Of a stretch of 64,000 nucleotides of DNA, positions 7,043 to 26,147 are shown one piece after another. The translations under genes and the position numbers were made by a program. Source of the stretch: Pyronema omphalodes (taxonomy: Eukaryota > Ascomycota > Pezizomycetes > Pezizales > Pyronemataceae); assembly GCA_024516155.1 (NCBI GenBank), contig JAJJXM010000031.1:62001-126000 (forward strand), in the 5' to 3' direction. Within the stretch, counting starts at the first letter, position 1, and each line of letters starts with the position of its first letter. The notes beneath the pieces are model-generated. The model did not search any database. It was given only the letters and a program-made list of their open reading frames with translations, and was not told where the DNA came from.

Positions 7043-8864
7043 ATGGCTCCCATGAAGCCTCCCCCCCCTCCGCGCTTCGGCCTCACCTCCGATATGCGCA
7101 TGTTCGGTGGCAGCAACTCATCCCGAGTCTCCACGCCTGCCCCCGCCGCCGAAGACGACGTGTTTGGGTCCTCCGCACCCGGCACCCCAACGCGTCCCAG
7201 TAAAGACGCCCCCTCCGCAGCCCCAGGATCAGGTTGGTCCTCGGGGAGCTCCCTTTCTTCGTGCCCCAGCACCGTGAAGAAACGCGCACACGTTGCGGCC
7301 TTCGGGTCGCTCGTGCAAAGCGAACTCCGTTCCGCCCCCGCGGTAGGTTCCCAGGCCTCCCCCCAAGTCAGCGTGTCCCTTATGGACAAGTTGTCGGAGC
7401 GCCTCGCCGCTGCGGAGGAACGCTTGAAGGCTCTGGAGGAGCAAATACGTCTCCAGGAAGCCCGCCCATGCTCGTGCCCGCAGGCAAACCCCGCGACGTC
7501 GACCCAGTCTACCGCCCTTCGCCAGCCCCACCCTGTTGGCACCCAACAGTCTGCTCAGGCAGAGAAATCCAGAACTTCCTCCGTTGTCGTAGGCATGCCC
7601 AAGGCTGCCCCCATACCATCCCTCCCCGCCCTCCCGCGTGCGTCCAAACTCACCGTGGCCCAATCCTACGCCGCAAAGCTCCGCAGCAACCTCCCCGAGC
7701 TCCCCCCCCCCGCCCCCCCCTCCGGCGTGGCAGCTTGTTCCCTCACGCAAACAGCTGAAGGCCCCCCAACGCCCTCCCAACTTTTCCGTCCCCGAAAAGA
7801 ACCTCGCCGCTGAAGATCGCCGCATGATCTTCGTCCGTCAGGAAGGCGCCCGCCCCTCGTCGAAACCAGACCAGGATTTCACGGCCGCCATCAACGTCTG
7901 CTTGCACCTCCGCGGTGCACCCCATTTCCACCGTGTAGCCCGAGTCTCCAGAAACTCGAAGGGAACGATCACGGCTACCACCAATCCGGGAGTGAGAGCG
8001 GACTCCCTGATATCGTGCTACCGCAACGAGATCCTCAATGCCATCCGCGAGGTTGACCGCTTTGTGGTGGACGTCAAACCCATGGACAAATGGGTCAAGT
8101 TGAAAGTCCACGCCATCCCCCTCAATCGTTTTCTGGGTAGAGGAAGGAATGGCCTGCAAAAGCTCGAGCTTGAGTTGCAAGCCAACCACGACCAGCTCGA
8201 GGTCATCCCAGGTGCTCGTTGGTTAGGCAGCAGACGACGCATTCGCGAGCGCTTTGAACAGGGCGAGATTCAGTCGTCTTCAGCTGTCTTTTCGGTGAAG
8301 GGAACCCCCGCTGCGCAAACGCTCATCGCTCGGGGCGCCCTCCTAGGATCCTCTCGTTACCGCGTCGAGCTCTTCAACCACGACGGCCCTGACAGTCAGT
8401 GCTCGGGCTGTCTTAAGTGGGGACACATTCGGGAGAAATGTCAAACCCCCAAGCTCTTCCGATGCCGATTCTGTGGTCAGCACCACGCTTCGGAGGAACA
8501 CAAGTGCAGCATGATAGGATGCTCCACCTCCAAGGGACTCCCGTGCCAGCATTCGAAGGAGTCTGCTCGTTGCGTTAATTGCAAAGGCAATCACTACGCC
8601 AACGCTCGCAACTGCCCATCCCGCCTTGAAGCCTTCGCCCTGGCCCGTCAGCGTCGCCAGATGTCTTCCTCCTCCGATCAAGCTTCCCCTGCAGCGAAAG
8701 CCTCGCAACCAGAAGCAGACCCCTCCTCTTCCGCCTCCAGCGATCCAAACGAATCCTCAACCACGGAGACCACATCAGCCCTCTCCACCCCCCGTCCTGC
8801 AGCCACGGCGTCTGACCCAGACGCTATGGTCGATGCCGAAGTGCCGGATAACACTCAATGCTGA
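7043..8864 (+). pseudogene. LINE ORF1 (gag-like RNA-binding protein), frameshifted
   Basis: Two frames join at a C-run (7702-7711, then G, then 7713-7720). The first frame opens at 7043 with a Pro/Ser-rich N-terminus and a short coiled coil (about residues 115-135). The second frame carries the rest to the stop at 8862-8864. It ends in three Cys/His knuckles typical of LINE ORF1: CSGCLKWGHIREKC, CRFCGQHHASEEHKC and CVNCKGNHYANARNC. The product would bind element RNA and form the ribonucleoprotein. The sequence has one base too many (or two too few) for a continuous frame, so this is a slippage mutation, an assembly error or, less likely, programmed frameshifting. Its stop overlaps the ORF2 start (ATGCTGA at 8858-8864). 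Confidence 0.85.
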
Positions 8865-11800
8865 AGTGCCTCACGGTACTTCAACTAAATTGCCGAAAGA
8901 GCGGTGAGGCTCTGACGGCGGTGATGGAGAGCGGTCTCGCTCTGGGTGCGGATGTGGTGTTGGTTCAGGAGCCCCCGACCTTCCAAGGTTGGCGCCATCC
9001 AGCCTACGAGTTCCTCTGGGGAGGAAGGGTTCTGACGGGGAGACGACGGGATTCGGCGTGGCAGCTTCGTCCACGAGAGGACTTGGCTGCGCCCGGGGAC
9101 GGTGACCTCCAGGTGCTGGACGTCACATGCAGAGGTCATAAACAAGTACGTATTGTAAATGTTTATGACGCTCCGCGGACTGATGATGGAGTGCGCCCTG
9201 CACGCAATGCGGACTGGCGCAGGATTATAGGACGGGACACTATTCTTGCTGGCGATTTCAACGCTCACAGCAGAAGGTGGAACCCCCTGTGCGAGAGGCC
9301 ACTCCATCATCAGTTCTTGGAAGATCTGATGGACTCATTCGATCTCCGCTATGTCGGTGATGGTAAGGAAACCCACACCCAAACGGGCCAGATCCGACAT
9401 AGCGTTATCGACTTAGTCCTGACGACGATGGAACTTGAAGCCCACGTGGTTGCGAAGCTCCTCGATGACCCGAATCACTCCACAACGTCCGATCATGAGG
9501 CGCTGATCTGGAAAGTGGACTCTGTGACGGTCCCAGAGGACTTCGACGCCCCAACCAGAGGATGGGCGGTTGGAGAATGGCTGGAGAGTGACGAAGGAGC
9601 GCAGAAAGCGGCGTTAGATTATCGCCATCGAAGCGAACGCAGACCGCTCCTATCCGATCACTGCTCCGAGAACGACGTTGAGGAAGAGGTGGTCTGGGTG
9701 CGTCAACAGCTGGTGGACATGCTGAACGCTCACGCTAGGAAGATCCGAATCACCGCTCGGTCTAAGAAGTGGTGGCACCCCGATGTTAAAGCAGCACGCA
9801 GCGAGTACGGCCGGAAACGGAGGGCAGCCAAGCGCGGTCAATGTTCGATAGAGGAAGAACATCGCCTCCGCAACGCCTACCTCAGCACCCAACGTCGCCA
9901 CAAACGAGAGTGTTGGGTTTCTTTCTTGGAGGGAGCCAACGGGGAGGCGGTATGGAAAGTCCTTCGCGCAACCAAACCGCGAAATGCTGCGGTGGTTGGA
10001 TCTCTTGAGGATGAACACGGCAACCAGGCTGACGAGGAGGATGCCAAACGTCGTATGCTTGCAGACGTTTCTTTCCCTCCCCCGAACCCATACCCCGGTC
10101 ACAGTGGCAACGCAGGCCCCCCAGGACGCGGATTCCTCCGAGTGACCCAAGAACTGGTCTCCGAGTCGATCCACGGTCAGAGCAACTCCAAGGCTCCGGG
10201 TGGTGACGGGTTAGGAGTACCTATTATCAAGGCGCTTATGCGATGGGACCCTGAACGGGTGACTTCCATCGTCTATCACTGCGTGCGGCTAGGATTCCAC
10301 CCAACCGACTGGAAAACTGCCAAAGGAGTCTGTATCCCCAAACCGGGGAAGACTTCCTACCGCAAAGCGAAGAGTTTCCGTATCATCTCTCTTTTAAGCT
10401 GTCTGGGGAAGTTAGTTGAAAAGGTAGTCGCCACCCTCATCGCGGAGGAGGCCGAGAGGCTACACGCTTTTCACGCTGGGCAATTTGGTGGGAGGAGAGG
10501 TCGCTCCGCCGTCGACGCCGCGGCAGTCTTGATTGAGGCGGTGGAATTCGCTTGGGAGAAGCAGAAACTTGCGGGAGCTCTAATGATGGACGTTAAAGGG
10601 GCCTTTCCTACTGTCAACCGAGACTGCCTTATGCGGAAAATGCGGCGAGCAGGCATGGATGAATGCTACGTGCGGTGGGTGTCTTCGTTTATGAGTGGTC
10701 GAAGAGTCGAGATATCACTAGGCGGTGACTCAGGTACACCCATCGAGACGAACACCGGCCTCCCCCAAGGATCCCCCGTGTCCCCAGTCCTTTTCTTGAT
10801 CTATATAGCCGATCTCGCTGATTATGTTGAATCAAGAGTCCCCGACGTGACAGGCCTGTCGTTTGTCGATGACGTGACCTGGATCGTGACCGGTGACTCT
10901 GCTCGGGAGGTCTCCGATAAGCTTGAACGGTGTGCAAACGCTTGCTCGTGGTGGGCCTCCACCAACGCGGTGGTGTTTGAAACAGACAAGACGGAAGCCA
11001 TGCTTTTTTCTCGACGGAGGGGAGAGGCTAACCCTGACGAGGTCACAGTCTCGGTAGGTCCTCACCAGATCCCGTTCGCCTCGTCAGCCATCCGTTGGCT
11101 CGGCTTTTGGCTCGATCCAAAGCTCACTCTTAACCACCATCACCAAAAGTGGTTGACCAAAGCCAGGCAACAGCATGCTCGTCTTGCGAGGCTTTGTCGT
11201 GCTCAGGGACTCCCTCCGGGGAGCACTGCTAACCTGCAAAAGGCGGTAGTCCAGTCAGTGGCTATGTATGGTGCGGAGATTAACGCAGTCCGGCGCCTAA
11301 AAGGCAAGAGCTCGGGACGCACTGCTCGGCTGCAACTGCTCCTCAATAAGCAAGCACGAGCGGTCACGGGGTGCTTCAAAACGACCCCACTCGGCTTCTT
11401 GATGGCTGAAAGTGCCGTACGCCCAGCGGAAGCGCTCATCAAAGGCCGAGAAGCAAAATTTCGGTCACGCCTTCTCACTCGCCCCCGCCCCGCCCCCCCC
11501 CTCGACCGGCACTCAACCGTCCCCGACCGCTGAGGCTATCACTCGGCTGCTTAAACGCACGGAAAAAGCATGTGGATTCGAAGCAGTCGAAAATGTCACA
11601 GTCCCCGACCGCTTTCGTCGCTTCCCCGTGGTGATCGCACCCAGGGCTGAAGCTGAAACCTTCGCCCGGAACTGGAGGAACCTCACGTCCACGACATGCA
11701 TCTGGACAGATGGCTCTCGAATGGAGGGACATACGGGAGCGGGAGTAGTCCGCTACATCAACGGAGCCTTTCGTTCTTCCCAGCACTACTTGGGTCGTCA

Positions 11801-12176
11801 TACGGAGGTGTTTGACGCTGAGCTCTACGCCATCTGGCGAGGGCTCAAGGAGTTCCATTCCAATCACTTCTGGGACCCCAACTCGAATACCAAAGCGATA
11901 GTGTTTTCGGACGCCCAGGCTGCTCTCAAGCGTCTGGAGTCTGACACCCCCGGTCCCGGCCAAGAGCTCGCCAAACTTATCTCCCGCGAAGCCTACTACC
12001 TCCTCTTTGACTCCGGTATCGACGTGGAATTCCATTGGATCCCGGGCCACAGCGATATCCCCGAAAACGAGGAAGCGGATCGAGTAGCTAAAGAAGCGTC
12101 GAAGCATCGCTGCGACTCCCGTATGCTCAAACGGTGTGACGACCCAGTGTGTGCTGTTCCGGCGTGGGCTTCCCTG

Positions 12177-12181
12177 GCGCA
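12177..12181. repeat. Target-site duplication of the Gypsy element (left)
   Basis: GCGCA directly precedes the left LTR and is repeated at 19579-19583 directly after the right LTR. Five bases is the usual Ty3/Gypsy duplication length. Confidence 0.9.
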
Positions 12182-12666
12182 TGTAACGGCGAACAAGGGA
12201 GAGATAGCTGACGGAGAACCTGAGGGCTCTTCTCAATTATCCACTCTTGAGTTCAATGGATATATCCTTATAATAACTTCAACGTTAGAAACTCTTAAGC
12301 TGTGTCTAGCATCAACTTAAAGACTTTCTGTGTTTAGAAGTTAAGGAAATAAACAAAGATTTCAAGGGACAGAGAGATCCAAAGACGGGGACGAGGACGA
12401 GGACGTAAACAAAGATTTTCGACAAAGTATTTGAATTTGTAAATAAACAAATAACTGTGTAAGGAGAAAAGAAAAACAAAATAAACAAACAAAGAAACAA
12501 TCCTCTTATATACAATTTTTCCTCCTTACACGCCGAGCCACTACTTGCAGAATTTTCCCGAAAAATAACTAAGTAAACAACGCGGTCGCGGTTGCGCGTT
12601 CTAGACGCGCTAACGCGTTCGTACCAAATTAGCGTGTTTGCGTGCACAGCCTCGTCGCGCGCTCGT

Positions 12667-12750
12667 TAGCGTATCTCGCGTGCGCGATAGCGTAACTCGC
12701 GTGCGCGGTAGCGTGCTTCGCGTGCGCGTTAGCGTAACCCTAAGCGTAGT
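12667..12750. repeat. 21-bp tandem repeat in U3 of the left LTR
   Basis: Units start at 12667, 12688, 12709 and 12730 with an exact 21-bp period and the core TAGCGTAACTCGCGTGCGCGG. The fourth unit runs into the first CCCTAA motif. The same array is in the right LTR, 6257 bases downstream. Confidence 0.85.
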
Positions 12751-13184
12751 CACGCGCGCGCTTCCGTAACCCTAATCGTGCGCGTGCGTCCGTAACCCTA
12801 ACCCTAGCTGTGCGCGTACGGTCACAAACCTAACCCTAGTTTGTGTGCGTGCGGGCGCAGCCCTAACCCTAGTCACGTGAAACCAGATCAGCTGCGATTG
12901 GAAAGATGGTGCAATACTGATAAGGTCACATGACTAGATCTTATCTTATCGATAAGATGATCGTGCCCTAGCCCTAGTCACGTGTGCGCACATTAGTAGA
13001 ACAGTGCGCGTGCATACTGATCTACTATTGATTAGAACACGTGACCGATCTTATCTAATCGGATAAGATGATCGGTAGACCGTAGGTATGGAATTTCCGA
13101 AAAGGGATCCGAGCTGACCCCTAACCCTGGGGATAAGTCACGTGACCTTTTTGACAATTTGGGAATTGAGCGCAACCCTAACCC
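12738..13184. repeat. Telomere-like CCCTAA motifs in U3
   Basis: At least seven CCCTAA or CCCTAACCC motifs are scattered over about 450 bases (first at 12738-12743, last at 13176-13184). They read TTAGGG in the element's sense direction. TTAGGG is the usual telomere repeat of filamentous ascomycetes. They are separated by 20-100 bases, so this is not a captured telomere tract. The right LTR has the same set. Confidence 0.8.
12943..12958. promoter_or_regulatory. Perfect 16-bp palindrome with GATA cores in U3
   Basis: ATCTTATCGATAAGAT is self-complementary and holds two inverted GATA sites. A second, imperfect palindrome with GATA cores spans about 13045-13075. Both recur in the right LTR. They resemble paired sites for fungal GATA factors; binding is inference. 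Confidence 0.5.
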
Positions 13185-13325
13185 AGGCGAGTGACGAGTG
13201 ATGATCGAAGACCGAAGGATAATAGAAATAAATAAACAAACGAGTGCTGGATAATGAAGCGAATGATAATAGGTGAATGAATGACGAGGAGGGGGAAGGT
13301 AATAATTCTCGAGCCGTGACAGGAT

Positions 13326-13335
13326 CCCCCTTCTT
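13326..13335 (-). promoter_or_regulatory. Polypurine tract of the Gypsy element
   Basis: On the minus strand AAGAAGGGGG lies 4 bases before the 3' LTR. This is the expected place for the plus-strand DNA primer. Confidence 0.65.
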
Positions 13336-13360
13336 GGACTGAGCTCCGGCGAAGTAACTT

Positions 13361-16300
13361 CTAAGATAAGTTGGGGAGGGGTCCCGGTTTATCGGGATAC
13401 TTTTTATGAAAGTCGTCAACGGCTTTACTGTCGAAATGGAGTTCGGCGGGTTCCCAATCGGGCATATCGTATCCAACCCATTTAACCATATACTGAAGTT
13501 TCTTCCGGTGAATTCGGGAGTCGAGGATAGCTTCGATGAAGTATTCGTCTTCACCGTCGATTTCCACCGGGGGTGGTGGGTCTGATTGTTGACCGGGGTA
13601 GGGGTCATTCGCAGCGGGTTCCAATAAGGAAACATGTTGAACGTTGTGACATTTCATTGTCGGAGGTAGTTCTAATCGATAGGCATAGGGGGATACTTTG
13701 GCGATAATCTTGAGGGGTCCGTAACGTTTGTTGTCTAATTTCCGGGAGGGTCGACGGGTTTTCCAATTACGGGCATTCATCCATACCAGATCTCCGGGCT
13801 GATAATTCGGTGACGGGAGTCGATGTTTATCGGCATTCTCTTGATAACGTAGATTAGCTCTGTTGATCTCAGCTCGTAAATGGTTATGGATTTCGGCGAG
13901 GGTTTTCGAAGTTGTGAGAGCCCGTCGATCGTTTACATCGTTCGTAGCTGCTGGAAGTAAATCGAATTGACAACGGGGGTCGAATCCTTTATTAGCAAAG
14001 AACGGGGAAGTTCCCGTTGTCTCGGATGCTTGGTTATTCGCAGCGAATTCCGCTAATGGTAACCAGTCAGCCCAATCGTCTTGAAGATAGTTGACGTGAG
14101 CTCGGAGGTATTGTTCCATAATGGCGTTCATTCGTTCTGTTTGGCCGTCCGTTTGAGGATGGAATGCTGTAGATAATCGAGGCTCGATTCCCAAACGTCG
14201 ACAGAGATTCTTCCAAAACAAAGCAGCGAATTGAGGTCCTCGATCAGAGATAATGGTAAGAGGGAGTCCATGCAATCGAAAGATGTGGGTAATAAACAAA
14301 GACGATAATTCCTTTGCGTCGATGTCTGTTCGACAGGCAATCAGATGCCGTTCTTTGGTTAATCTATCCACAACTACCCAAATTGCATCACACCCATTGG
14401 ACCACGGTAATCCTGTTACGAAGTCCATTGATATGTCCTGCCAAGGTCTTTCTGGAATAGGTAGTGGACGTAGGATACCAAACGGGGCATGTCTGGTAGG
14501 TTTCGAACGTTGGCAGGTATGACAATTTCGAATATATCTCTCCACGTCTGTTCTCATCTGGGGCCACGTATAGGTTCTTGAGAGGTATTCTAATGTTTTA
14601 GATCTACCTGGGTGTCCAGCCGTAGGAGAGTCGTGGTGTTGTTGCATTAGGTGTAATCGTAGGGGTTCGTAATTCGGGACCCATAAACATCCCCGGTAGA
14701 ATAAACGGTTATTGTTTACTGTACATTCAGCTAATGTAATGTCTTTACAATAACGAGTGTTATTGTTTAGCATTTCAATAACCTTAATGGGGAATGGGTC
14801 TTTCTCGTAGGCTTCCGTAAAGAGCTGGGATAAGGTGGGGTTTGTTTGTTGTGGGTCCGGTATTACGGTTTGTTGCGAATTCGTTATTGTTTGTTGATTA
14901 CTGGGGGTAACAGCCGCAGCGTGAAGGATATTCTCTGGCTTAATGATCGTTGTGTGGTTCTCTAGGGAGCGTTCATCCCCCTCTTTAGGCAGATCTCCGG
15001 ATCGACGAGTCAGTGCGTCTGGTTTACCGCCTGCGGTACCGGGGCGGTAAACAATCTTAAAATTAAACTGAGACAAGAACTGGGACCAACGGGCTTGACG
15101 GCGGTTCAAGAGCTTTGTCGAAGTGAAATATTCCAGATTCTTATGATCTGACAGTACTCGGATGGGGTTAATAACAGATTGCAATTCGGGACGCCATTCC
15201 TCGAAGGCCCGGACGATAGCCATGAGTTCTTTATCGTATATCTCATAATTACATTCGGCGGGGGAATGTTTCTTTGAGAAGTAAGCAATAGGATGTAAGA
15301 TTCCTTCATCATCGTATTGAGAAAGAACTCCGGCGGAGACATAATCAGAAGCATCGGTTTCGACAATAACATCCCGGTCTGGGTCGAAACGAGCCAAAAC
15401 GGGGGCGGATGTAAATGTTGATTTCAATGCCTCAAAGGCCTGTTGTTGGGATTCTGACCAGACGAAAGGAACTCCTTTACGTGTGAGTAACGTAAGAGGT
15501 TGGACTATTTTTGAATAGTTCTTAACGAAACGTCGATAGAAGTTTGCAAATCCCAAAAACGCTCTAACATCTTTGAGGTTCCGGGGAGATTCCCAATCTC
15601 GAACCGCAGTAATCTTCTCAGGATCCATCTTTATACCTTCTGTACTAATGATGAGTCCTAAGTACTTTACTTCCTTCTGGTGGAACTCGCATTTCTCTGG
15701 TTTGAGATGTAACCCTGCTTTTTCGAATGCTTCGAGAATCAATTTAACATGTTGTTTATGTTCTTCGAGGTTATCCGAATAGATCAGGGTGTCATCCAAA
15801 TAGGCAGTACAGAATCGATCAAGGTAAGGTGCCAATACGTCGTTAATGAAGTTCTGAAACGTAGCAGGGGCATTGGTAAGTCCGAAGGGCATAACCAATG
15901 ATTCGAATAAACCGTACCGGGTACGAAAAGCGGTTTTCCATTCTTCCCCATTTGCCATACGTATTAAGTTATACGCCCCCCTAATGTCGAGCTTAGTGAA
16001 CCACTTAGCTCTTGAAAGGTTCATTAAGGTATCCTGCATCAGGGGAAGAGGGTAGCGATTCTTGATCGTTCCGGCGTTGATTCCACGATAATCGACCACC
16101 AAACGTAATGAACCATCGCCTTTCTTTACGAAAAGAATGGGAGCGGCCGCTGGGGACGAGGAAGCACGGATGAAACCTTTGGTAAGGTTCTCATCTAACC
16201 AACGTTTCAATTCCTCCAACTCTGGACGTGATAGGGAGTAAAGAGGACCGAAGGGAGGCTGAAAACCATCGACGAGTGATATCTTGTGATCCGACGGTCG

Positions 16301-17218
16301 ATGGGGCGGTAACTTGTCGGCGTTGACCTTTTCGAAGATTCCCAAGTACTGGTGATATTCGGGTGGTACAATAGTCTTAAGATCCGGTTCCTCTTTCTCT
16401 GGTTGAAGAGCTGTGGTGATTTCATTCAAAGATAAGGAGAATTGTTCGACTTTTCCGTAACGGTTGTTGGCATTGTTTACAATGCGTCGAAACGTCGTAG
16501 CTGAAATGGCACAGATCTTATTCTGTTGTTTCGGAGCAATACCCTTAACAGGGGTGGGTGTTAACGTGGTTCGGTGGGGGAGGCAGTTCGGTGATGAGAA
16601 TTTGATATCGTTATCGGCGAAGTTTATTGTAACATCGTGTTTACGAAGCCATGGGATTCCTAAAACGAGGGGATAATGACCAAGCCGAGTAACGTAGGCA
16701 GTTAGTAGTTCATGATGGTCTCCTATTGTACATTCGACTTCAACGTATTCGGTGATGTCTCCTGATGAAATAGGTCGTCCATCAATTACTTCGACCATTT
16801 TGGGGTTTTTCAATTGATAACGGGGGAAGTTGTGTTGGCGTGCGAAGTCTTCGTTCATGAAGGAAATTCCTGTGCATCCGCAGTCTACGAGAGCATGAGT
16901 ATCGATCTTGGTATTGTGTTCAGTTAGTGTACATGGCACGACCAAATGATTCCCATCCAATTCGTTTTCTTGTTTACTTGACAAAGAACTAGCGGATACA
17001 TAAACGATTTCCTGAGATGAAACGAAAGACGAGGCAGGGGCTGGTCCAACAACAGAGCCAACAGGCTGTTGATGGACTACTCTTTTCCCTGGTCGACGTC
17101 GGGGTTTGTTGGAATATCCAAGACCTCGGCGGCGGCTAGGCGAATCTTGCGGGAGTTGTTTGCTGCCAACGTAGAACATTCGTTCTTGAAATGATCGGCT
17201 GATCCACAATAAAGACAA
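13361..17218 (-). CDS. pol: Gypsy pol polyprotein: protease, RT, RNase H, integrase, chromodomain
   Basis: The open frame is 1285 codons with no internal stop. It overlaps gag by 142 bases in the -1 frame, so the translated part probably begins at the slippery site 17083-17089 rather than at an ATG. Domains by residue of the open frame are: aspartic protease (D112 in VDCG, a DCG instead of the usual DSG or DTG); RT (YLDD 473-476); RNase H (about 615-740, TDAS at its start); integrase with a His/Cys zinc region (about 858-902) and catalytic D932, D992 and E1028, the last two separated by 35 residues; and a C-terminal chromodomain (about 1215-1275, YMVKWVGYDMPDWEP). Chromodomains in this family can guide integration to marked chromatin. 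It is probably processed by its own protease in virus-like particles. Confidence 0.95.
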   Translation of the reverse strand: MSLLWISRSFQERMFYVGSKQLPQDSPSRRRGLGYSNKPRRRPGKRVVHQQPVGSVVGPAPASSFVSSQEIVYVSASSLSSKQENELDGNHLVVPCTLTEHNTKIDTHALVDCGCTGISFMNEDFARQHNFPRYQLKNPKMVEVIDGRPISSGDITEYVEVECTIGDHHELLTAYVTRLGHYPLVLGIPWLRKHDVTINFADNDIKFSSPNCLPHRTTLTPTPVKGIAPKQQNKICAISATTFRRIVNNANNRYGKVEQFSLSLNEITTALQPEKEEPDLKTIVPPEYHQYLGIFEKVNADKLPPHRPSDHKISLVDGFQPPFGPLYSLSRPELEELKRWLDENLTKGFIRASSSPAAAPILFVKKGDGSLRLVVDYRGINAGTIKNRYPLPLMQDTLMNLSRAKWFTKLDIRGAYNLIRMANGEEWKTAFRTRYGLFESLVMPFGLTNAPATFQNFINDVLAPYLDRFCTAYLDDTLIYSDNLEEHKQHVKLILEAFEKAGLHLKPEKCEFHQKEVKYLGLIISTEGIKMDPEKITAVRDWESPRNLKDVRAFLGFANFYRRFVKNYSKIVQPLTLLTRKGVPFVWSESQQQAFEALKSTFTSAPVLARFDPDRDVIVETDASDYVSAGVLSQYDDEGILHPIAYFSKKHSPAECNYEIYDKELMAIVRAFEEWRPELQSVINPIRVLSDHKNLEYFTSTKLLNRRQARWSQFLSQFNFKIVYRPGTAGGKPDALTRRSGDLPKEGDERSLENHTTIIKPENILHAAAVTPSNQQTITNSQQTVIPDPQQTNPTLSQLFTEAYEKDPFPIKVIEMLNNNTRYCKDITLAECTVNNNRLFYRGCLWVPNYEPLRLHLMQQHHDSPTAGHPGRSKTLEYLSRTYTWPQMRTDVERYIRNCHTCQRSKPTRHAPFGILRPLPIPERPWQDISMDFVTGLPWSNGCDAIWVVVDRLTKERHLIACRTDIDAKELSSLFITHIFRLHGLPLTIISDRGPQFAALFWKNLCRRLGIEPRLSTAFHPQTDGQTERMNAIMEQYLRAHVNYLQDDWADWLPLAEFAANNQASETTGTSPFFANKGFDPRCQFDLLPAATNDVNDRRALTTSKTLAEIHNHLRAEINRANLRYQENADKHRLPSPNYQPGDLVWMNARNWKTRRPSRKLDNKRYGPLKIIAKVSPYAYRLELPPTMKCHNVQHVSLLEPAANDPYPGQQSDPPPPVEIDGEDEYFIEAILDSRIHRKKLQYMVKWVGYDMPDWEPAELHFDSKAVDDFHKKYPDKPGPLPNLS

Positions 17219-18195
17219 AGTCCCTTAGCCATTCGTTCATCACGACGGCGTTGGTTCTGAGCCTTTTGGGAAGCTGATAGGTCCATGGGGGCCGATCCGT
17301 AATTACCACTATTGGTATTCGTTGGGTGGGACGCCGGGCGAGACGGCGTAGAGCTGGAACGACTGGGGACCGAAGAAACGTGCCGCTTTGTGGTGTTTGA
17401 ATGAGCTCGAATTCTGTAATCTAGCTTCATACAAAGATCCACAAATTTGGTGAAGTTCTGAGGTTCTTCGGCTTGGTAAACAAGACTGGTCTGAAGGTCT
17501 CGAGAGAGTCCACGCTTCAGAGCAGCCTTCTTTGCGTTTTCGTCGTAATTCAAGATGGCCATTAATCGTTGGAATTCTGCGTAGTATTGGCTAAACTCAC
17601 GGTTGCCCTGTTGAAGTTTATCCAATTCCGCAGATGCAGTACCAACTTGATCAGGATCTCCGAAGGCAGCTTCCAGAATTGTAATGAGAGCCTCAACGTC
17701 CTTAAGCTTAATCTTATCTGTAAGGACGTAGGGTTGAATTTGATTCTGAGCGTTGCCTTTGAGGTATCCATAAGTATAACGTAGCTTATGTTGATCGTCG
17801 GTAAAACGGGAGGAGTCTCCGGCGAGCTTGGATCTGACCTTCGAGATGAAGTTCAAGAGTTCCTTGCGTTCACCAGAGAACTCAGGTGGGTGGGGTAATT
17901 CGATGGGACGGGTATTCGGAAGGGGACCGTTCTTCGTAAGGGCTTGTAGAAGTCGAACGGAGGCGTTGGCGCTTTCGAGATCTCTTTCCAAATCGGTAAT
18001 TCGTTGAGCGTAGAGGGAGTTGTCCTTTCGAGCTTCTGTGAGTTCGGCTCGAAGGTCGTCCCTAAGTTGACAGTCTCGTTCGTATTCTTTTACGGCGTTA
18101 CGGACCAATTTGATCTTCGTAGGGTCCTGTTCGACCTCTAGCCTTTCGGCTTCGTTGAGGTACAGGGCCACGACGACCTTGTTGTTTTGGTCCAT
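17077..18195 (-). CDS. gag: Gypsy Gag protein, 372 aa
   Basis: It opens at MDQNN, 243 bases inside the right LTR. It has an N-terminal coiled coil (about residues 35-80), a central capsid-like helical region (about 100-270, the retrotransposon gag fold with its QQGNREFSQYYAEF segment), a Ser/Pro-rich linker and one CCHC zinc knuckle (CLYCGSADHFKNEC, about 327-340). Gag assembles the particle and packages the RNA. The frame ends in TAG at 17077-17079, two codons after the GGGAAAA slippery heptamer, so most ribosomes should make Gag and a minority Gag-Pol. Confidence 0.93.
   Translation of the reverse strand: MDQNNKVVVALYLNEAERLEVEQDPTKIKLVRNAVKEYERDCQLRDDLRAELTEARKDNSLYAQRITDLERDLESANASVRLLQALTKNGPLPNTRPIELPHPPEFSGERKELLNFISKVRSKLAGDSSRFTDDQHKLRYTYGYLKGNAQNQIQPYVLTDKIKLKDVEALITILEAAFGDPDQVGTASAELDKLQQGNREFSQYYAEFQRLMAILNYDENAKKAALKRGLSRDLQTSLVYQAEEPQNFTKFVDLCMKLDYRIRAHSNTTKRHVSSVPSRSSSTPSRPASHPTNTNSGNYGSAPMDLSASQKAQNQRRRDERMAKGLCLYCGSADHFKNECSTLAANNSRKIRLAAAEVLDIPTNPDVDQGKE
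17083..17089 (-). promoter_or_regulatory. Putative -1 ribosomal frameshift site GGGAAAA
   Basis: In the gag frame the codons are CA G GGA AAA GAG TAG, so the heptamer G GGA AAA fits the X XXY YYZ rule in phase. A -1 slip continues in the pol frame with residues KRVVHQQPVG, exactly as seen in the pol ORF. I did not model the downstream RNA structure. Confidence 0.8.
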
Positions 18196-18424
18196 TTCGA
18201 GGGATTAACGGAGGTGCCAGATGTTGGTTTCGTCGTTATATTGAATTCGAGTTGCTGCGTATTCGTTTCCGAGTTGTCGAGCAATTTCGATTTCGTCAAG
18301 GACGACGGGGTTTTCGAGGGAACGGAAGATCGGTAATAGGTTGATGAATTCGTAGAACCAGAGGTTGTGGAGCATGTAAAGCTTGTTGTAATCGAGAGTT
18401 GACGGTAGAGCCGGCAGGTCTTGA

Positions 18425-18436
18425 TTACACAGTTAT
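18425..18436 (-). promoter_or_regulatory. Putative primer-binding site, self-complementary type
   Basis: In the transcript this reads ATAACTGTGTAA and begins 2 bases after the 5' LTR. It does not start with TGG, as tRNA-primed sites do. It is a perfect 12-base complement of the LTR sequence at 18708-18719. Tf1 of fission yeast and its relatives prime from the folded 5' end of their own RNA in this way. Confidence 0.7.
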
Positions 18437-18707
18437 GTTGTAACGGCGAACAAGGGAGAGATAGCTGACGGAGAACCTGAGGGCTCTTCTCAATTATCCA
18501 CTCTTGAGTTCAATGGATATATCCTTATAATAACTTCAACGTTAGAAACTCTTAAGCTGTGTCTAGCATCAACTTAAAGACTTTCTGTGTTTAGAAGTTA
18601 AGGAAATAAACAAAGATTTCAAGGGACAGAGAGATCCAAAGACGGGGACGAGGACGAGGACGTAAACAAAGATTTTCGACAAAGTATTTGAATTTGTAAA
18701 TAAACAA

Positions 18708-18719
18708 ATAACTGTGTAA
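18708..18719 (-). promoter_or_regulatory. Putative self-primer and transcript start
   Basis: The transcript-sense sequence TTACACAGTTAT pairs perfectly with the 12-base site at 18425-18436. In Tf1 the self-primer is the extreme 5' end of the RNA. A TATA box about 43-50 bases upstream (18762-18769) makes a start near 18719 reasonable. Confidence 0.6.
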
Positions 18720-18761
18720 GGAGAAAAGAAAAACAAAATAAACAAACAAAGAAACAATCCT

Positions 18762-18769
18762 CTTATATA
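18762..18769 (-). promoter_or_regulatory. TATA box of the Gypsy 5' LTR
   Basis: TATATAAG on the minus strand, about 43-50 bases upstream of the proposed transcript start at 18719. The left LTR has the same site at 12505-12512. Confidence 0.55.
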
Positions 18770-19578
18770 CAATTTTTCCTCCTTACACGCCGAGCCACTA
18801 CTTGCAGAATTTTCCCGAAAAATAACTAAGTAAACAACGCGGTCGCGGTTGCGCGTTCTAGACGCGCTAACGCGTTCGTACCAAATTAGCGTGTTTGCGT
18901 GCACAGCCTCGTCGCGCGCTCGTTAGCGTATCTCGCGTGCGCGATAGCGTAACTCGCGTGCGCGGTAGCGTGCTTCGCGTGCGCGTTAGCGTAACCCTAA
19001 GCGTAGTCACGCGCGCGCTTCCGTAACCCTAATCGTGCGCGTGCGTCCGTAACCCTAACCCTAGCTGTGCGCGTACGGTCACAAACCTAACCCTAGTTTG
19101 TGTGCGTGCGGGCGCAGCCCTAACCCTAGTCACGTGAAACCAGATCAGCTGCGATTGGAAAGATGGTGCAATACTGATAAGGTCACATGACTAGATCTTA
19201 TCTTATCGATAAGATGATCGTGCCCTAGCCCTAGTCACGTGTGCGCACATTAGTAGAACAGTGCGCGTGCATACTGATCTACTATTGATTAGAACACGTG
19301 ACCGATCTTATCTAATCGGATAAGATGATCGGTAGACCGTAGGTATGGAATTTCCGAAAAGGGATCCGAGCTGACCCCTAACCCTGGGGATAAGTCACGT
19401 GACCTTTTTGACAATTTGGGAATTGAGCGCAACCCTAACCCAGGCGAGTGACGAGTGATGATCGAAGACCGAAGGATAATAGAAATAAATAAACAAACGA
19501 GTGCTGGATAATGAAGCGAATGATAATAGGTGAATGAATGACGAGGAGGGGGAAGGTAATAATTCTCGAGCCGTGACA

Positions 19579-19583: not shown

Positions 19584-20037
19584 CCTCAACCGGATCGCAA
19601 CGGAAACGACATCGACTATCACTCGTCGCTGGGTTAAGCAACAAACAGCGACCAGCCGTTCCTTCCGCCCCCGCCAGAAATGGGGAATCCGCCCTGAATT
19701 GGTCTCCCTACCCAAACGCCGAGCAGCTGTGTTCCTCCAGCTTGCTTCAGGCCACGCCCTCATCGGCACCCATCTGGTGCGCGTTAAGAAAAAAGAGTCG
19801 GACCGGTGCTGGTGGTGCCAGTCAGAAAAAAGACAAACCAGAGGCCATTTGTTTGGAGAATGCCCCCGCTGGCGAAAGGAGTTCAAGACGTTGAAAGAGG
19901 AGGTTGAGAGAATACGGGGACGGAGGGGAAGGCCGAGAGGAAGGCTTAAGGTGGTGGATTTATTTAGGGACGATCGACTCACGAAAGCGATCTTGGAATT
20001 TTTATCTGCAACGGAGATAGGCAGAAGATACGTATAG

Positions 20038-20847: not shown

Positions 20848-22722
20848 CTAATCATAACTCGGCTTAAAACACTCCAACCACTGACTTAACGCGTATTTAA
20901 ACATATTAGTCGCTTCTGCTGCTTGTTCACTCGCACGGAAGTCATAACAATGCTGCGAGTTCTTGAGTAGGAATCCAAAAACTTCGTTCCATTTGGTTTC
21001 TTGGTTGCATCTGGGGGTTTGTGCAATGGTGCGGAAAGGAGGGGCGAATGCTTCGGTCGTAAGAGGAGAAAGAGTCCGCCATCTAGAAGAGGAGTCAATA
21101 AGCTACGCCCATAAACTCCGACTGCCTGTTAAGGGAACTTACGGATCGTACTGTCCACCAGTCCAGAAGACGTTGCTGGGACGCATGTACCAACCCTGGG
21201 TGTGGGCGTTCGTCTCCAAAGTTCTAGGAGCAGCCGGCAGCAGGCCAGACCACAAACCGTCCGGAAATTGACGGTAGCATATCTCCTGCTGATGCTGCAG
21301 ACTCTGGTATCGCGAACCAAGAGCGTGTTTTCCAAGGTTTGTGGACTGGAAGTAACCCCACTCAGTGCAGTATCTATACACATCAGTTCTTATTCCCCAG
21401 AATCACGGCCGATCACCACTCACTGCCAAGTCCAAGAAATTCCTAAATCTCCAGTAAACCGCTCATCCACCAAACAATTGGGAGTAGCAGTTTCATTCTT
21501 CACGGGTCCCTCACAGTATCCGAAAGAGTTGTACTCGTTGACCAACCCAATGAAACCCGGCCATGATGCCCATCTGTCCGCATAATGCTTTCCAATCTCT
21601 TCCGGAGTCGCTTTCTTTGGTGGTTCTTTTTCGTTTAGGTATCCACACCAGTCACGAATGACATTATCAATACCGCCCGACTGCCAACCATAGAAAGGAT
21701 AAGTCAACATATCCGCAAAACCCGCATTTGATCCCTTGTCCGCTGTGCGCCCAAGGAACTGCACTTTGATTTCCGCGGATGTATTGTAGTTGTCGAGACG
21801 AGTATCAATGTAATCGACAGCGGCTTTAATGTGGTCAGTGCAGTTTCGAAGGCCGTTGTCAACCATTCCTCGATAGACTTGCTCAAAGTAAATCGACATG
21901 TCCTTCTGAGCTTGTACGGGGGCGGAAGATGCGTAGGCGGCATACACAGTTTCGGGATAGAGATGACGGAGCATGGCCGCTCGCATACCAGGGTAACTAC
22001 CTCCGATGACCACCCACGGGGATTTCTTGGGGTTCACGGGGTATCCTTTCCAGTAGAATTGGTTGGCAAAGACAACAAAGTCCTCGAGGGCCGCTTTTGT
22101 GGTGAGATACTTCATCTTTGAAGATGGGGTATCAAGGGTGACTTCAAAGGGTTTACTTTGGCCGTAGTAACTGTTACAAGTCAGCACGGTGAGAACGGGG
22201 GATAGAATAGAGGATTACCGGTGCTCCCAAACAATTCCCAACCCCTTGAACTCCTGCAGATACTTGTAGAAAAACGTAGTGTTCCTCGTCATATACCCCA
22301 GATACGCGTCGCCGCCATTAGATTCGCCGGTATCGAAAGTAAAGATTGGTCCACCTGGTTCATAGAACTCATCCACGACCCAATATCTGTTTGAGAAGTT
22401 TCCAACTGACGGATCATCATGATCGATAGGTAACTGTTCTTCAATTAGTTCTCTACACAAAGTTGAAAGTATCGCCGGGGAAGGGAAAACTCACAGACAC
22501 ATTAAGCCAATAAACCTTCGGGGTAAAAGCCTGAGCTTCTGTATCCCACAGCATCCCATCAGATTGATCCCAAGTACCGTTGTCCCATTGCTTCGACGTT
22601 TGGAATTGATGGTCCTTGTTGAGAATCTGTAGTTCCTTTTCGATTTCGATTTCTCGCATGTGCTTGCGAGCGAATACCGAAGCCGCAAGGCCAAGGACGA
22701 CGGCGAGCGTCTTGAGTTGCAT
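20848..22722 (-). CDS. Secreted serine peptidase, family S28, 551 aa
   Basis: Five exons: 22722-22495, 22433-22219, 22170-21424, 21373-21143 and 21082-20848, with introns of 48-61 bp. The joins restore family text such as PIDHDDPS, WEHRYYGQ, WQYCTEWGYFQ and QYDPW. A signal peptide is visible (MQLKTLAVVLGLAASVFA), so it is secreted or vacuolar. The nucleophile Ser is about 206 in GGSYPG, the Asp about 473 in QYDP and the His about 518 in SQHCYDF. Members cleave after Pro or release N-terminal dipeptides, usually at acidic pH; which activity applies here cannot be told. The length fits fungal S28 enzymes. The first intron is the least certain: the CAG acceptor at 22434 was chosen because it keeps phase and gives a family-like join. 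Confidence 0.9.
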
Positions 22723-24737: not shown

Positions 24738-26147
24738 ATGTCCTCACGCTGGACCGACACCGCCGAAGACCTTGCCGAAGCCGCACGACTGAAAGCCGAA
24801 AAAGCCGCGAGAAAAGCTGCAAAAGCTGCCCAGAAAGCACGCGAAGAAGCTGCTGCTGCGGAACAGAAAGCGGCGGAGGAAGCGGCTGCGAATGCCCCCC
24901 CTTCAAAACGACAAAAGACGGAAAATTATACCCAAGATGATGGGGAATTGGCAACAAAGGAGGTTAGGTTGATGAGATTTGAGGGCCCGGAAATTGGGTG
25001 TTGTAGACATGTTGAGGAAACTTATGAGAGGTTGAATCACATCGAGGAAGGATCATATGGAATTGTCTCTAGAGCAAAGGATATGCATACCGGCGAGATT
25101 GTGGCTTTGAAACGACTAAAGCTGGAACGAGAAACCGATGGATTTCCTATTACGAGTTTACGAGAGGTGACGACCTTAATGGCTGCTCGGGGTCATGTAA
25201 ACGTAGTAAAGCTACGAGAAGTAGTAATGGGAGATTCCCTGAAAGAGTATGTCATATCCATTCCCTAATTCCTCTTTTTTTATTCTCACTAACCACCCGC
25301 AAGTGTGTACATAGTAATGGACTTTATCGAACACGATCTCAAAACCCTCCTGGACTCACTACCCGAACCCTTCCTACTATCCGAAACCAAAACGCTACTC
25401 ATCCAGCTTCTTTCCGCTGTCGATTTCCTGCATGATCACTGGATTATTCACCGAGACTTAAAAACCTCCAACCTCCTCCTCAATAACCGGGGCCAGATAA
25501 AACTCGCCGACTTCGGACTCGCACGCTACACCTCCGATCCACCACCACAGTTAACCCAGCTAGTCGTAACCCTCTGGTACCGAGCCCCAGAACTCCTCCT
25601 CGGAGCCACCACCTACGGTCCCGAAATCGATCTCTGGAGTGTGGGCTGCATATTCGGGGAGCTTCTTACCCGTACTCCTTTGCTGCAGGGAAAAAATGAA
25701 ATCGACCAACTCACAAAAATCTTCGAACTCCTGGGAGTACCCACGGAAGAAACCTGGCCCGGATTCCGTCGTCTCCCTAACTCCAAATCTTTAACCTTCC
25801 CGAAATCATCCGCAACAACTGGTTCATTACTAAGAACGAAGTTCCCACTTCTTACCAAGGCGGGAGTGGAACTTCTGGGGGCGTTGCTGTGTTATGATCC
25901 GAAAACTAGGATATCGGCGGAAGATGCTTTGAGACATGTGTTCTTTAAGGAAGAACCAAGACCGAAGAGGGAAGAGATGTTACCGACTTTCCCCAGTAAA
26001 GCGGGGCAGGAGAAGAGGAGAAGGGCATTTTCGCCGGGTGCACCGGTTAGAGGGGATGCGCCGAAATTGGAGGGGGTTATGGAGGGTGTATTTGGAGGGG
26101 AGGAAGAGGAGGTGGGTGCAGGATTTTCGTTGAGGATGGGGAGGTAG
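24738..26147 (+). CDS. CDK11/PITSLRE-type cyclin-dependent kinase, 450 aa
   Basis: Exon 1 is 24738-25246, the intron 25247-25303 (branch CACTAACC) and exon 2 25304-26147. I took ATG 24738 (MSSRWTD, context CGACCATG); no ATG lies further upstream in this frame before the TATA-poor flank. Residues 1-70 are an Ala/Lys/Glu helix. The kinase domain starts near 95: a Gly loop (EEGSYGIV), VALKRLK with the ATP Lys, the cyclin-binding helix PITSLREV that gives the family its name, HRDLKTSNLLL (catalytic Asp), DFGLAR, VVTLWYRAPELLLG (activation-loop Thr) and DLWSVGCIFGELL. CDK11 kinases bind cyclin L and act on transcription and splicing in the nucleus. A CDK10-like identity is less likely because of the exact PITSLRE motif. 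Confidence 0.9.

What the first reader, a model, noticed from the sequence alone, without database searches (positions are those of the whole stretch)
18425..18719. Self-priming signature in the Gypsy chromovirus
The site 2 bases inside the 5' LTR (ATAACTGTGTAA in the transcript) does not begin with the TGG of a tRNA-primed PBS. It is a perfect 12-base complement of an LTR segment (18708-18719) that lies about 43-50 bases downstream of a TATA box. A specific 12-base match in a 1.1-kb LTR is unlikely by chance. Self-priming is established for fission-yeast Tf1, a chromovirus relative; that it applies to this element is inference.
Basis: partly seen in the sequence, partly recalled or inferred. 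Interest (0 to 1): 0.75.

Follow-up and report, generated by a model that had tools for sequence, protein, structure and literature searches.

The report
Self-priming retrotransposon in a Pyronema fungus
This jumping gene in a cup fungus very probably starts copying its RNA into DNA with the front end of its own RNA instead of a borrowed tRNA, a trick known from fission yeast; related families in the same genome keep the matching pair of sites although the letters differ, and share a further RNA stem around it.

Summary
Confirmed. The element (minus strand, 12182-19578) is an open-framed chromodomain Gypsy retrotransposon with identical 1140-bp LTRs and GCGCA target-site duplication. Two bases past its 5' LTR lies ATAACTGTGTAA, the exact complement of the single LTR site TTACACAGTTAT, 50 nt after TATATAAG. 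Shuffled LTRs match this well in 4 of 20000 trials; of 6241 positions in the element only this one does. The host looks like Pyronema (one gene). The strongest support is comparative: nine element groups in this genome and four elements from other records carry a primer/PBS pair in this geometry, with ten different sequences; exchanging PBS and LTR among five families destroys the match. A TATA-like box lies 31-55 nt before the primer in 13 of 14 rows, against 1.3% of background positions. This is Tf1/sushi-type self-priming, a known mechanism; the transcript start is unmapped. Beyond the finding, a covarying U5-leader stem brackets the PBS and holds a 2x2 pyrimidine loop, CC/CC in seven groups; I found no description of that loop in the passages read, but the original Tf1 papers were not available.

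The parts
12182..19578 (-). whole LTR retrotransposon (family A), inserted in a LINE-like ORF
   Evidence: identical 1140-bp LTRs and TSD GCGCA
18439..19578 (-). 5' LTR
   Evidence: 100% identical to 12182-13321
12182..13321 (-). 3' LTR
18762..18769 (-). TATA box TATATAAG, 50 nt upstream of the self-primer
18708..18719 (-). self-primer TTACACAGTTAT, proposed transcript 5' end (U3/R border)
   Evidence: exact complement of the PBS; that the transcript starts here is inferred
18425..18436 (-). primer-binding site ATAACTGTGTAA
18474..18487 (-). U5 strand of the stem that brackets the PBS: AGAGCC CT CAGGTT
18407..18420 (-). leader strand of the same stem: GACCTG CC GGCTCT
17077..18195 (-). gag ORF (372 aa, Retrotrans_gag)
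13361..17218 (-). pol ORF in the -1 frame: protease, RT, RNase H, integrase, SH3_Tf2-1, chromodomain
17083..17089 (-). candidate -1 slippery heptamer GGGAAAA, in the right phase, just before the gag stop
   Evidence: function inferred
13322..13335 (-). purine-rich tract AAGAAGGGGGATCC next to the 3' LTR, probable PPT
   Evidence: sequence; role inferred

Best explanation
The element is a Tf1/sushi-type, self-primed chromovirus. Transcription from the 5' LTR starts at or next to 18719, so the RNA begins with UUACACAGUUAU. That 5' end folds back onto the PBS 283 nt downstream; a U5-leader stem brackets the PBS and presents it. The element's RNase H cuts the RNA after about 12 nt, and the released 5' fragment primes minus-strand DNA synthesis at the LTR edge. 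Shown here: the complementarity, its position, its covariation between families, the promoter spacing, the protein set and the covarying stem. Inferred: the exact start, the cut and the priming itself. Further inference: because in tRNA-primed elements the primer is itself copied into the new PBS during reverse transcription (recalled general knowledge), a self-primed element may rewrite its PBS from its own 5' end in each cycle, which would keep the two in step.
For: Exact 12-nt match at the right place, 4 of 20000 shuffles, unique among 6241 positions. Five families: own-pair matches 12, 10, 9, 12, 9 nt, cross-pair 4-7 nt. Further copies fetched: B 4 of 4, C 2 of 3 (L086 turned out to be an E copy), D 1 of 1 (9 bp), E 2 of 2 carry the pair. 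Four of seven more distant groups, G, H, I and L, and four elements from other records, L106, L108, L111 and L119, have pairs of their own. TATA-like box in 13 of 14 rows against 0.013 background. Predicted primer:PBS pairing probability 0.92-0.94 for the first 295-323 nt of A. Covarying stem around the PBS. Pfam: gag, RT, RNase H, integrase, SH3_Tf2-1, chromodomain. LTR ends TGTCACG and CGTTACA fit the published sushi motifs TGTYANR and CNTNACA, and also those of the rGmr1 clade (PMC3601003 passages). Published: self-priming is a common feature of Tf1/sushi elements (PMC10085805, section 28 read in full).
Against: No RNA data. With more downstream sequence the predicted pairing falls (A 0.70 at 363 nt and 0.25 at 403 nt; B 0.08 at 448; C 0.00 at 226 and 266; E 0.00 at 300 and 340). 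Nine-nt matches are weak singly: 60 (C) and 96 (E) of 20000 shuffles, and 6 and 11 of 1345 pseudo-sites. Five A copies with a PBS mutation all have an unchanged primer, which fits decay after insertion but gives no compensation within the family. Group F has a 12-nt pair two bases after a CA, without TATA-like box or stem, so a match of this length can occur without the rest; J and K gave no convincing pair. The TATA motif set and the 30-56 nt range were fixed after seeing the families. LTR ends outside family A were read from sequence, not from a second LTR.
Confidence: 0.93

Rival explanations
1. A host tRNA, or a half tRNA, primes at this site and the LTR match is a coincidence.
For: Most LTR elements are tRNA-primed (general knowledge). 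My tRNA set is small: 15 distinct sequences of 7 ARAGORN anticodon types.
Against: The PBS has no TGG start. Best tRNA match 6 nt against 12 for the LTR. Coincidence does not explain ten different PBS sequences each matching its own LTR.
Confidence: 0.03
2. The pairing of the two 12-mers is real but serves another role, such as RNA circularisation, packaging or translation control, with a different primer.
For: Sequence alone shows pairing, not priming. Retroviral leaders have many long-range pairings (general knowledge).
Against: The pair starts about 2 nt after the LTR edge, where minus-strand synthesis must start to copy the LTR end, in all 14 rows counted, and the element has the proteins of the group for which this pair is the primer.
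Confidence: 0.04
3. The complementarity is a passive relic: shared ancestry of repeats, or chance in a C/T-rich leader.
For: Family A copies are nearly identical, so their agreement is not independent evidence. Group F shows a 12-nt pair without promoter box or stem.
Against: Swap control 4-7 nt against 9-12 nt; one of 6241 positions; compensated changes A to B and L106 to L108.
Confidence: 0.01

Closest known systems
Tf1 of Schizosaccharomyces pombe
   Same: Chromodomain Gypsy element; first bases of the RNA complementary to a PBS beside the 5' LTR; reported RNase H release of the primer (first 11 bases; PMC7175516 passage); U5-IR-like structure needed (title of Lin and Levin 1998, seen only in reference lists).
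   Different: Here 12 nt, 281 nt from primer start to LTR end, 1140-bp LTR, gag with a CCHC knuckle (sequence) and a -1 frame gag-pol overlap; Tf1 has a single ORF and no CCHC.
Tj1, Tosmo1-3 and Tcry1 of other fission yeasts
   Same: PBS complementary to the RNA 5' end, potential pretzel structure with two more duplexes (PMC4600332 section 3; PMC10085805 section 28).
   Different: Those have an in-frame stop between gag and pol; this one has a -1 overlap, which PMC10085805 gives as the predominant mode of Tf1/sushi elements outside fission yeasts.
Tcn1 elements (Cryptococcus, non-seed plants)
   Same: Chromoviruses proposed or predicted to self-prime (PMC7175516 and PMC6317226 passages).
   Different: Treated as a clade of its own in PMC6317226. 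[quoted passage not shown]

Membership tests
Tf1/sushi self-primed chromoviruses | PBS complementary to the RNA 5' end, beside the 5' LTR | tested here: met
   complementarity and position met; that the site is the RNA 5' end rests on TATA spacing only
Tf1/sushi self-primed chromoviruses | C-terminal chromodomain on integrase, gag-pol with RT before integrase | tested here: met
   Chromo 27.4 bits over cut-off 25.1, residues 1228-1273; domain order
Tf1/sushi self-primed chromoviruses | placement in the clade by RT phylogeny | tested here: inconclusive
   the five Pyronema families form one set (98/96) inside a 12-row set of filamentous-ascomycete elements (99/99), but no named Tf1, sushi or skippy row was available
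Tf1/sushi self-primed chromoviruses | no tRNA-type PBS | tested here: inconclusive
   no TGG; best match 6 nt, but only 15 tRNA sequences tested
Tf1/sushi self-primed chromoviruses | two extra duplexes between PBS-adjacent and 5' LTR sequence (pretzel) | tested here: inconclusive
   one is supported: the downstream flank pairs with U5 (as strong in 14 of 1000 flank shuffles and 31 of 1000 U5 shuffles for A); the upstream 4-bp duplex is not above shuffles for A (214 of 500 as strong)
Tf1/sushi self-primed chromoviruses | RNase H release of the primer | not testable with these tools
   needs RNA and enzyme
tRNA-primed Gypsy elements | PBS starting TGG, complementary to a tRNA 3' end | tested here: not met
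   PBS starts ATAACTG

The most novel reading that the evidence does not exclude
In self-primed fungal chromoviruses the PBS lies in the loop of a U5-leader stem whose two helices change freely while a symmetric 2x2 loop of pyrimidine mismatches between them is kept: C-C/C-C in C, D, E, G, H, I and L, one C-to-U change in A and B, U-U/U-U in L119. The loop would be a fixed recognition or hinge element of the self-priming complex, read by the element's RT/RNase H or Gag, and a structural signature for finding such elements. The primer/PBS pair would be rewritten from the RNA's own 5' end in each cycle, so that families drift to mutually incompatible primers.
Probability: 0.4. Interest if true: 0.6.

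Novelty: new member of a known kind. Interest (0 to 1): 0.42.

Why it matters
In the papers read here self-priming is demonstrated for Tf1 and otherwise proposed or predicted from sequence. One fungal genome with nine related element groups, six different primer/PBS sequences and many near-identical copies is a natural covariation experiment. It turns the prediction into a tested pattern, offers ready-made natural variants for biochemistry, and exposes a conserved stem and loop whose role can be probed directly.

Tried and rejected
tRNA priming was tested on the tRNA genes in the loci and found no support; the set is too small to close the question. A 3' splice-site reading of the pyrimidine run before TTACACAG was considered and dropped, since it explains neither the PBS match nor the other families. 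Within-family compensation was sought in the five PBS-mutated copies among the eight single-mismatch rows that one search listed; none was compensated. The other 14 sites with mismatches were not listed and not examined. The upstream 4-bp pairing (UUGU with ACAA) is not better than shuffles in A, B and C (214, 196 and 397 of 500), better in D (55) and E (5). Viral contigs gave no relatives. L072 holds an inverted copy of family E and was not used; L086 was an E copy, not C's leader. F, J and K: first stretches, then 3.6 kb each on both strands. F has a 12-nt pair (CCTTAAGTTTAT) two bases after a CA, without TATA-like box and without stem (958 of 1000 shuffles as strong); the same sequence occurs inverted in L073, so it is a wider repeat, and it was not counted. 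Alignment of the leaders by MAFFT used wrong minus-strand coordinates for several rows and cannot align the stems; it was discarded and the pairs were counted with the loop as anchor. C2 (L074) was left out of the pair table as a near copy of C, and H as a near copy of G with one mismatch. Of the 32 loci, 29 were scanned; L130, L134 and L135 were not. Four gave a pair of 9 nt or more with a TATA-like box; L113 and L114 gave 8-nt matches with a TATA-like motif nearby and were not counted. A second scan of the other 25 for a primer held in a 3' LTR gave nothing convincing (one AT-rich 12-nt match in L131 was set aside). A host gene at 21420-22187 was uninformative on the species. Paper searches; three original Tf1 papers are not held, so absence of the loop from print is not established.

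Full report
What is there. The window comes from an ascomycete, probably Pyronema: a CDK11-like ORF at 25305-26147 is 100% identical over 280 residues to a Pyronema omphalodes protein; a second host gene was uninformative. The element lies on the minus strand at 12182-19578 (7397 bp). Its LTRs are identical over 1140 bp and it is flanked by GCGCA, so it inserted recently. Gag and pol are open, pol in the -1 frame with a GGGAAAA heptamer in the right phase before the gag stop, and pol carries RT, RNase H, integrase, a Tf2-type SH3 domain and a chromodomain.

The observation. Directly from the sequence, the minus strand reads ...CGTTACA|AC|ATAACTGTGTAA|TCAAGACC at the 5' LTR edge, and TATATAAG...CTCCTTACACAGTTATTTG inside the LTR. 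The two 12-mers are exact complements, the match ends at 12 nt, and the LTR holds the partner once. Against first-order shuffles of the LTR, 4 of 20000 reach this with the start fixed and 10 of 20000 with six allowed starts. No other position among 6241 in the element has a 12-nt complement in the 1140 nt before it.

The comparative test. RT searches of the same genome gave related families at 90, 75, 73 and 67% RT identity (B, C, D, E) and more distant groups, whose identities to each other I did not compute. Their leaders show the same layout with other letters: B ACTCAGTTAT/ATAACTGAGT, C ACAGAACGT/ACGTTCTGT, D GATATGCAACGT/ACGTTGCATATC, E ATCGAACGT/ACGTTCGAT, and ACGCAATCAA/TTGATTGCGT in G, H, I and L (G and H have nearly the same leader). 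The PBS starts 2 nt after an LTR end in ...ACA; in G, H, I and L the pairing takes in one of those two bases. Each PBS of A to E matches its own LTR over 9-12 nt and the other families' LTRs over 4-7 nt. From A to B one pair changes from A-T to T-A on both sides. Nine groups with six different pairs thus come from this genome. Groups F, J and K did not fit: F has a 12-nt pair without promoter box or stem, J and K none that convinces. The K stretch holds an inverted element with the TTGATTGCGT motif and a C-C loop stem, but no primer for it was found in 3.6 kb. Only family A has both LTRs compared.

Outside this genome. A scan of assembled prokaryote genomes returned 32 loci, evidently eukaryotic contaminants. 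Of 29 scanned, four have a pair of 9-12 nt with a TATA-like box: L106 AAGGTGAACAA, L108 AAGGCGAACAA, L111 ACTCTTGATCAA and L119 AGCAATTAG. L106 and L108 differ by one compensated pair; both come from the same assembly.

Promoter spacing. A TATA-like motif lies 31-55 nt before the primer in 13 of 14 rows, against 658 of 49519 background positions. The motif set and range were chosen after looking at the families, so the contrast is somewhat flattered. The exception, L074, is an altered copy of family C. This is the best indication without RNA that the primer is the transcript 5' end.

Folding. For the first 295-323 nt of the A transcript the primer:PBS pairs have mean probability 0.92-0.94; with 403 nt this falls to 0.25. 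B falls to 0.08 at 448 nt, C to 0.00 at 226 nt, E to 0.00 at 300 nt; D is 0.35 at 187 nt and 0.97 at 267 nt. Plain folding neither proves nor excludes the structure in a full transcript.

A second structure. The 3' flank of the PBS pairs with U5, bracketing the LTR edge and the PBS in a loop of 43-58 nt. In A the stem is AGAGCC CT CAGGTT with GACCTG CC GGCTCT; in C ACTGCGTA CC TTGGA with TCCAA CC TACGCAGT; in I GGTTGTATCG CC TGTCG with CGACA CC CGATACAACT. Nine rows compared at eleven pair positions (two positions with eight rows) are all standard pairs, with two to four pair types per position. The rows were lined up by their pairing, so this shows covariation rather than an unbiased rate. 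Shuffled PBS flanks reach the same energy in 0-34 of 1000 and shuffled U5 in 0-65 of 1000 for the ten Pyronema rows; for L119 0 and 1 of 1000; for L106, L108 and L111 in 166-478 of 1000, so those three lack it. The 2x2 loop is CC/CC in seven groups (six in the scan, plus H, whose stem has one mismatch), CT/CC in A, CC/TC in B and TT/TT in L119. Of 152 stems with a 2x2 loop in 16 stretches, seven have CC/CC, and all seven are this stem (C, its copy C2, D, E, G, I, L). Lin and Levin 1998, known to me only by its title in reference lists, reports a U5-IR-like structure needed by a self-primed element, and PMC10085805 (section 28) describes two duplexes beside the PBS of Tf1; I take this stem as the equivalent of one of them. 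The conserved loop is the part I did not find described, with the limits given under Tried and rejected.

Within the family. Eight of eight copies from the loci have primer, PBS and both stem strands unchanged; they had been picked by an exact PBS match, so only primer and stem are informative. Five copies picked for a PBS mutation keep the primer. Genome-wide there are 114 PBS sites and 263 LTR primer sites within 3 mismatches, so solo LTRs or fragments are likely common.

Verdict. The element is a new member of a known kind. The added value is the covariation across families and the bracketing stem with its pyrimidine loop.

Noticed in passing
18992-19441: The U3 of the LTR holds eight TAACCC motifs, all on one strand, among degenerate tandem units of 21-32 bp; the flanks have about 0.6 per 1140 bases. 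They look telomere-like and could be binding sites of a telomere-repeat factor in the promoter. The 2.5-kb stretches of other families (L069-L074) hold 0 to 4, but may not cover their whole U3.
   Followed up: partly
8858-12181 and 19584-20037: The element sits inside what looks like a LINE (an endonuclease/RT-like ORF, then an RNase H-like ORF that resumes after the insertion); judged from the translations, not searched against families.
   Followed up: no
G000, family E (e.g. L073, L088, L089): Family E has at least 130 RT matches in this genome, all listed ones 97-100% identical in protein to the query, so more than one chromovirus family seems recently active.
   Followed up: no
L104-L135: Thirty-two contigs filed in bacterial or archaeal assemblies encode chromovirus-like RT; they are probably fungal or algal contaminants.
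   Followed up: partly
L099: The stretch fetched for group K holds an inverted element with the TTGATTGCGT motif and the C-C loop stem on the other strand; no primer for it was found.
   Followed up: partly
L101/L094 junction and L073: A repeat with the 12-nt pair CCTTAAGTTTAT/ATAAACTTAAGG occurs in group F and, inverted, in the E locus, without promoter box or stem; its nature is unknown.
   Followed up: partly
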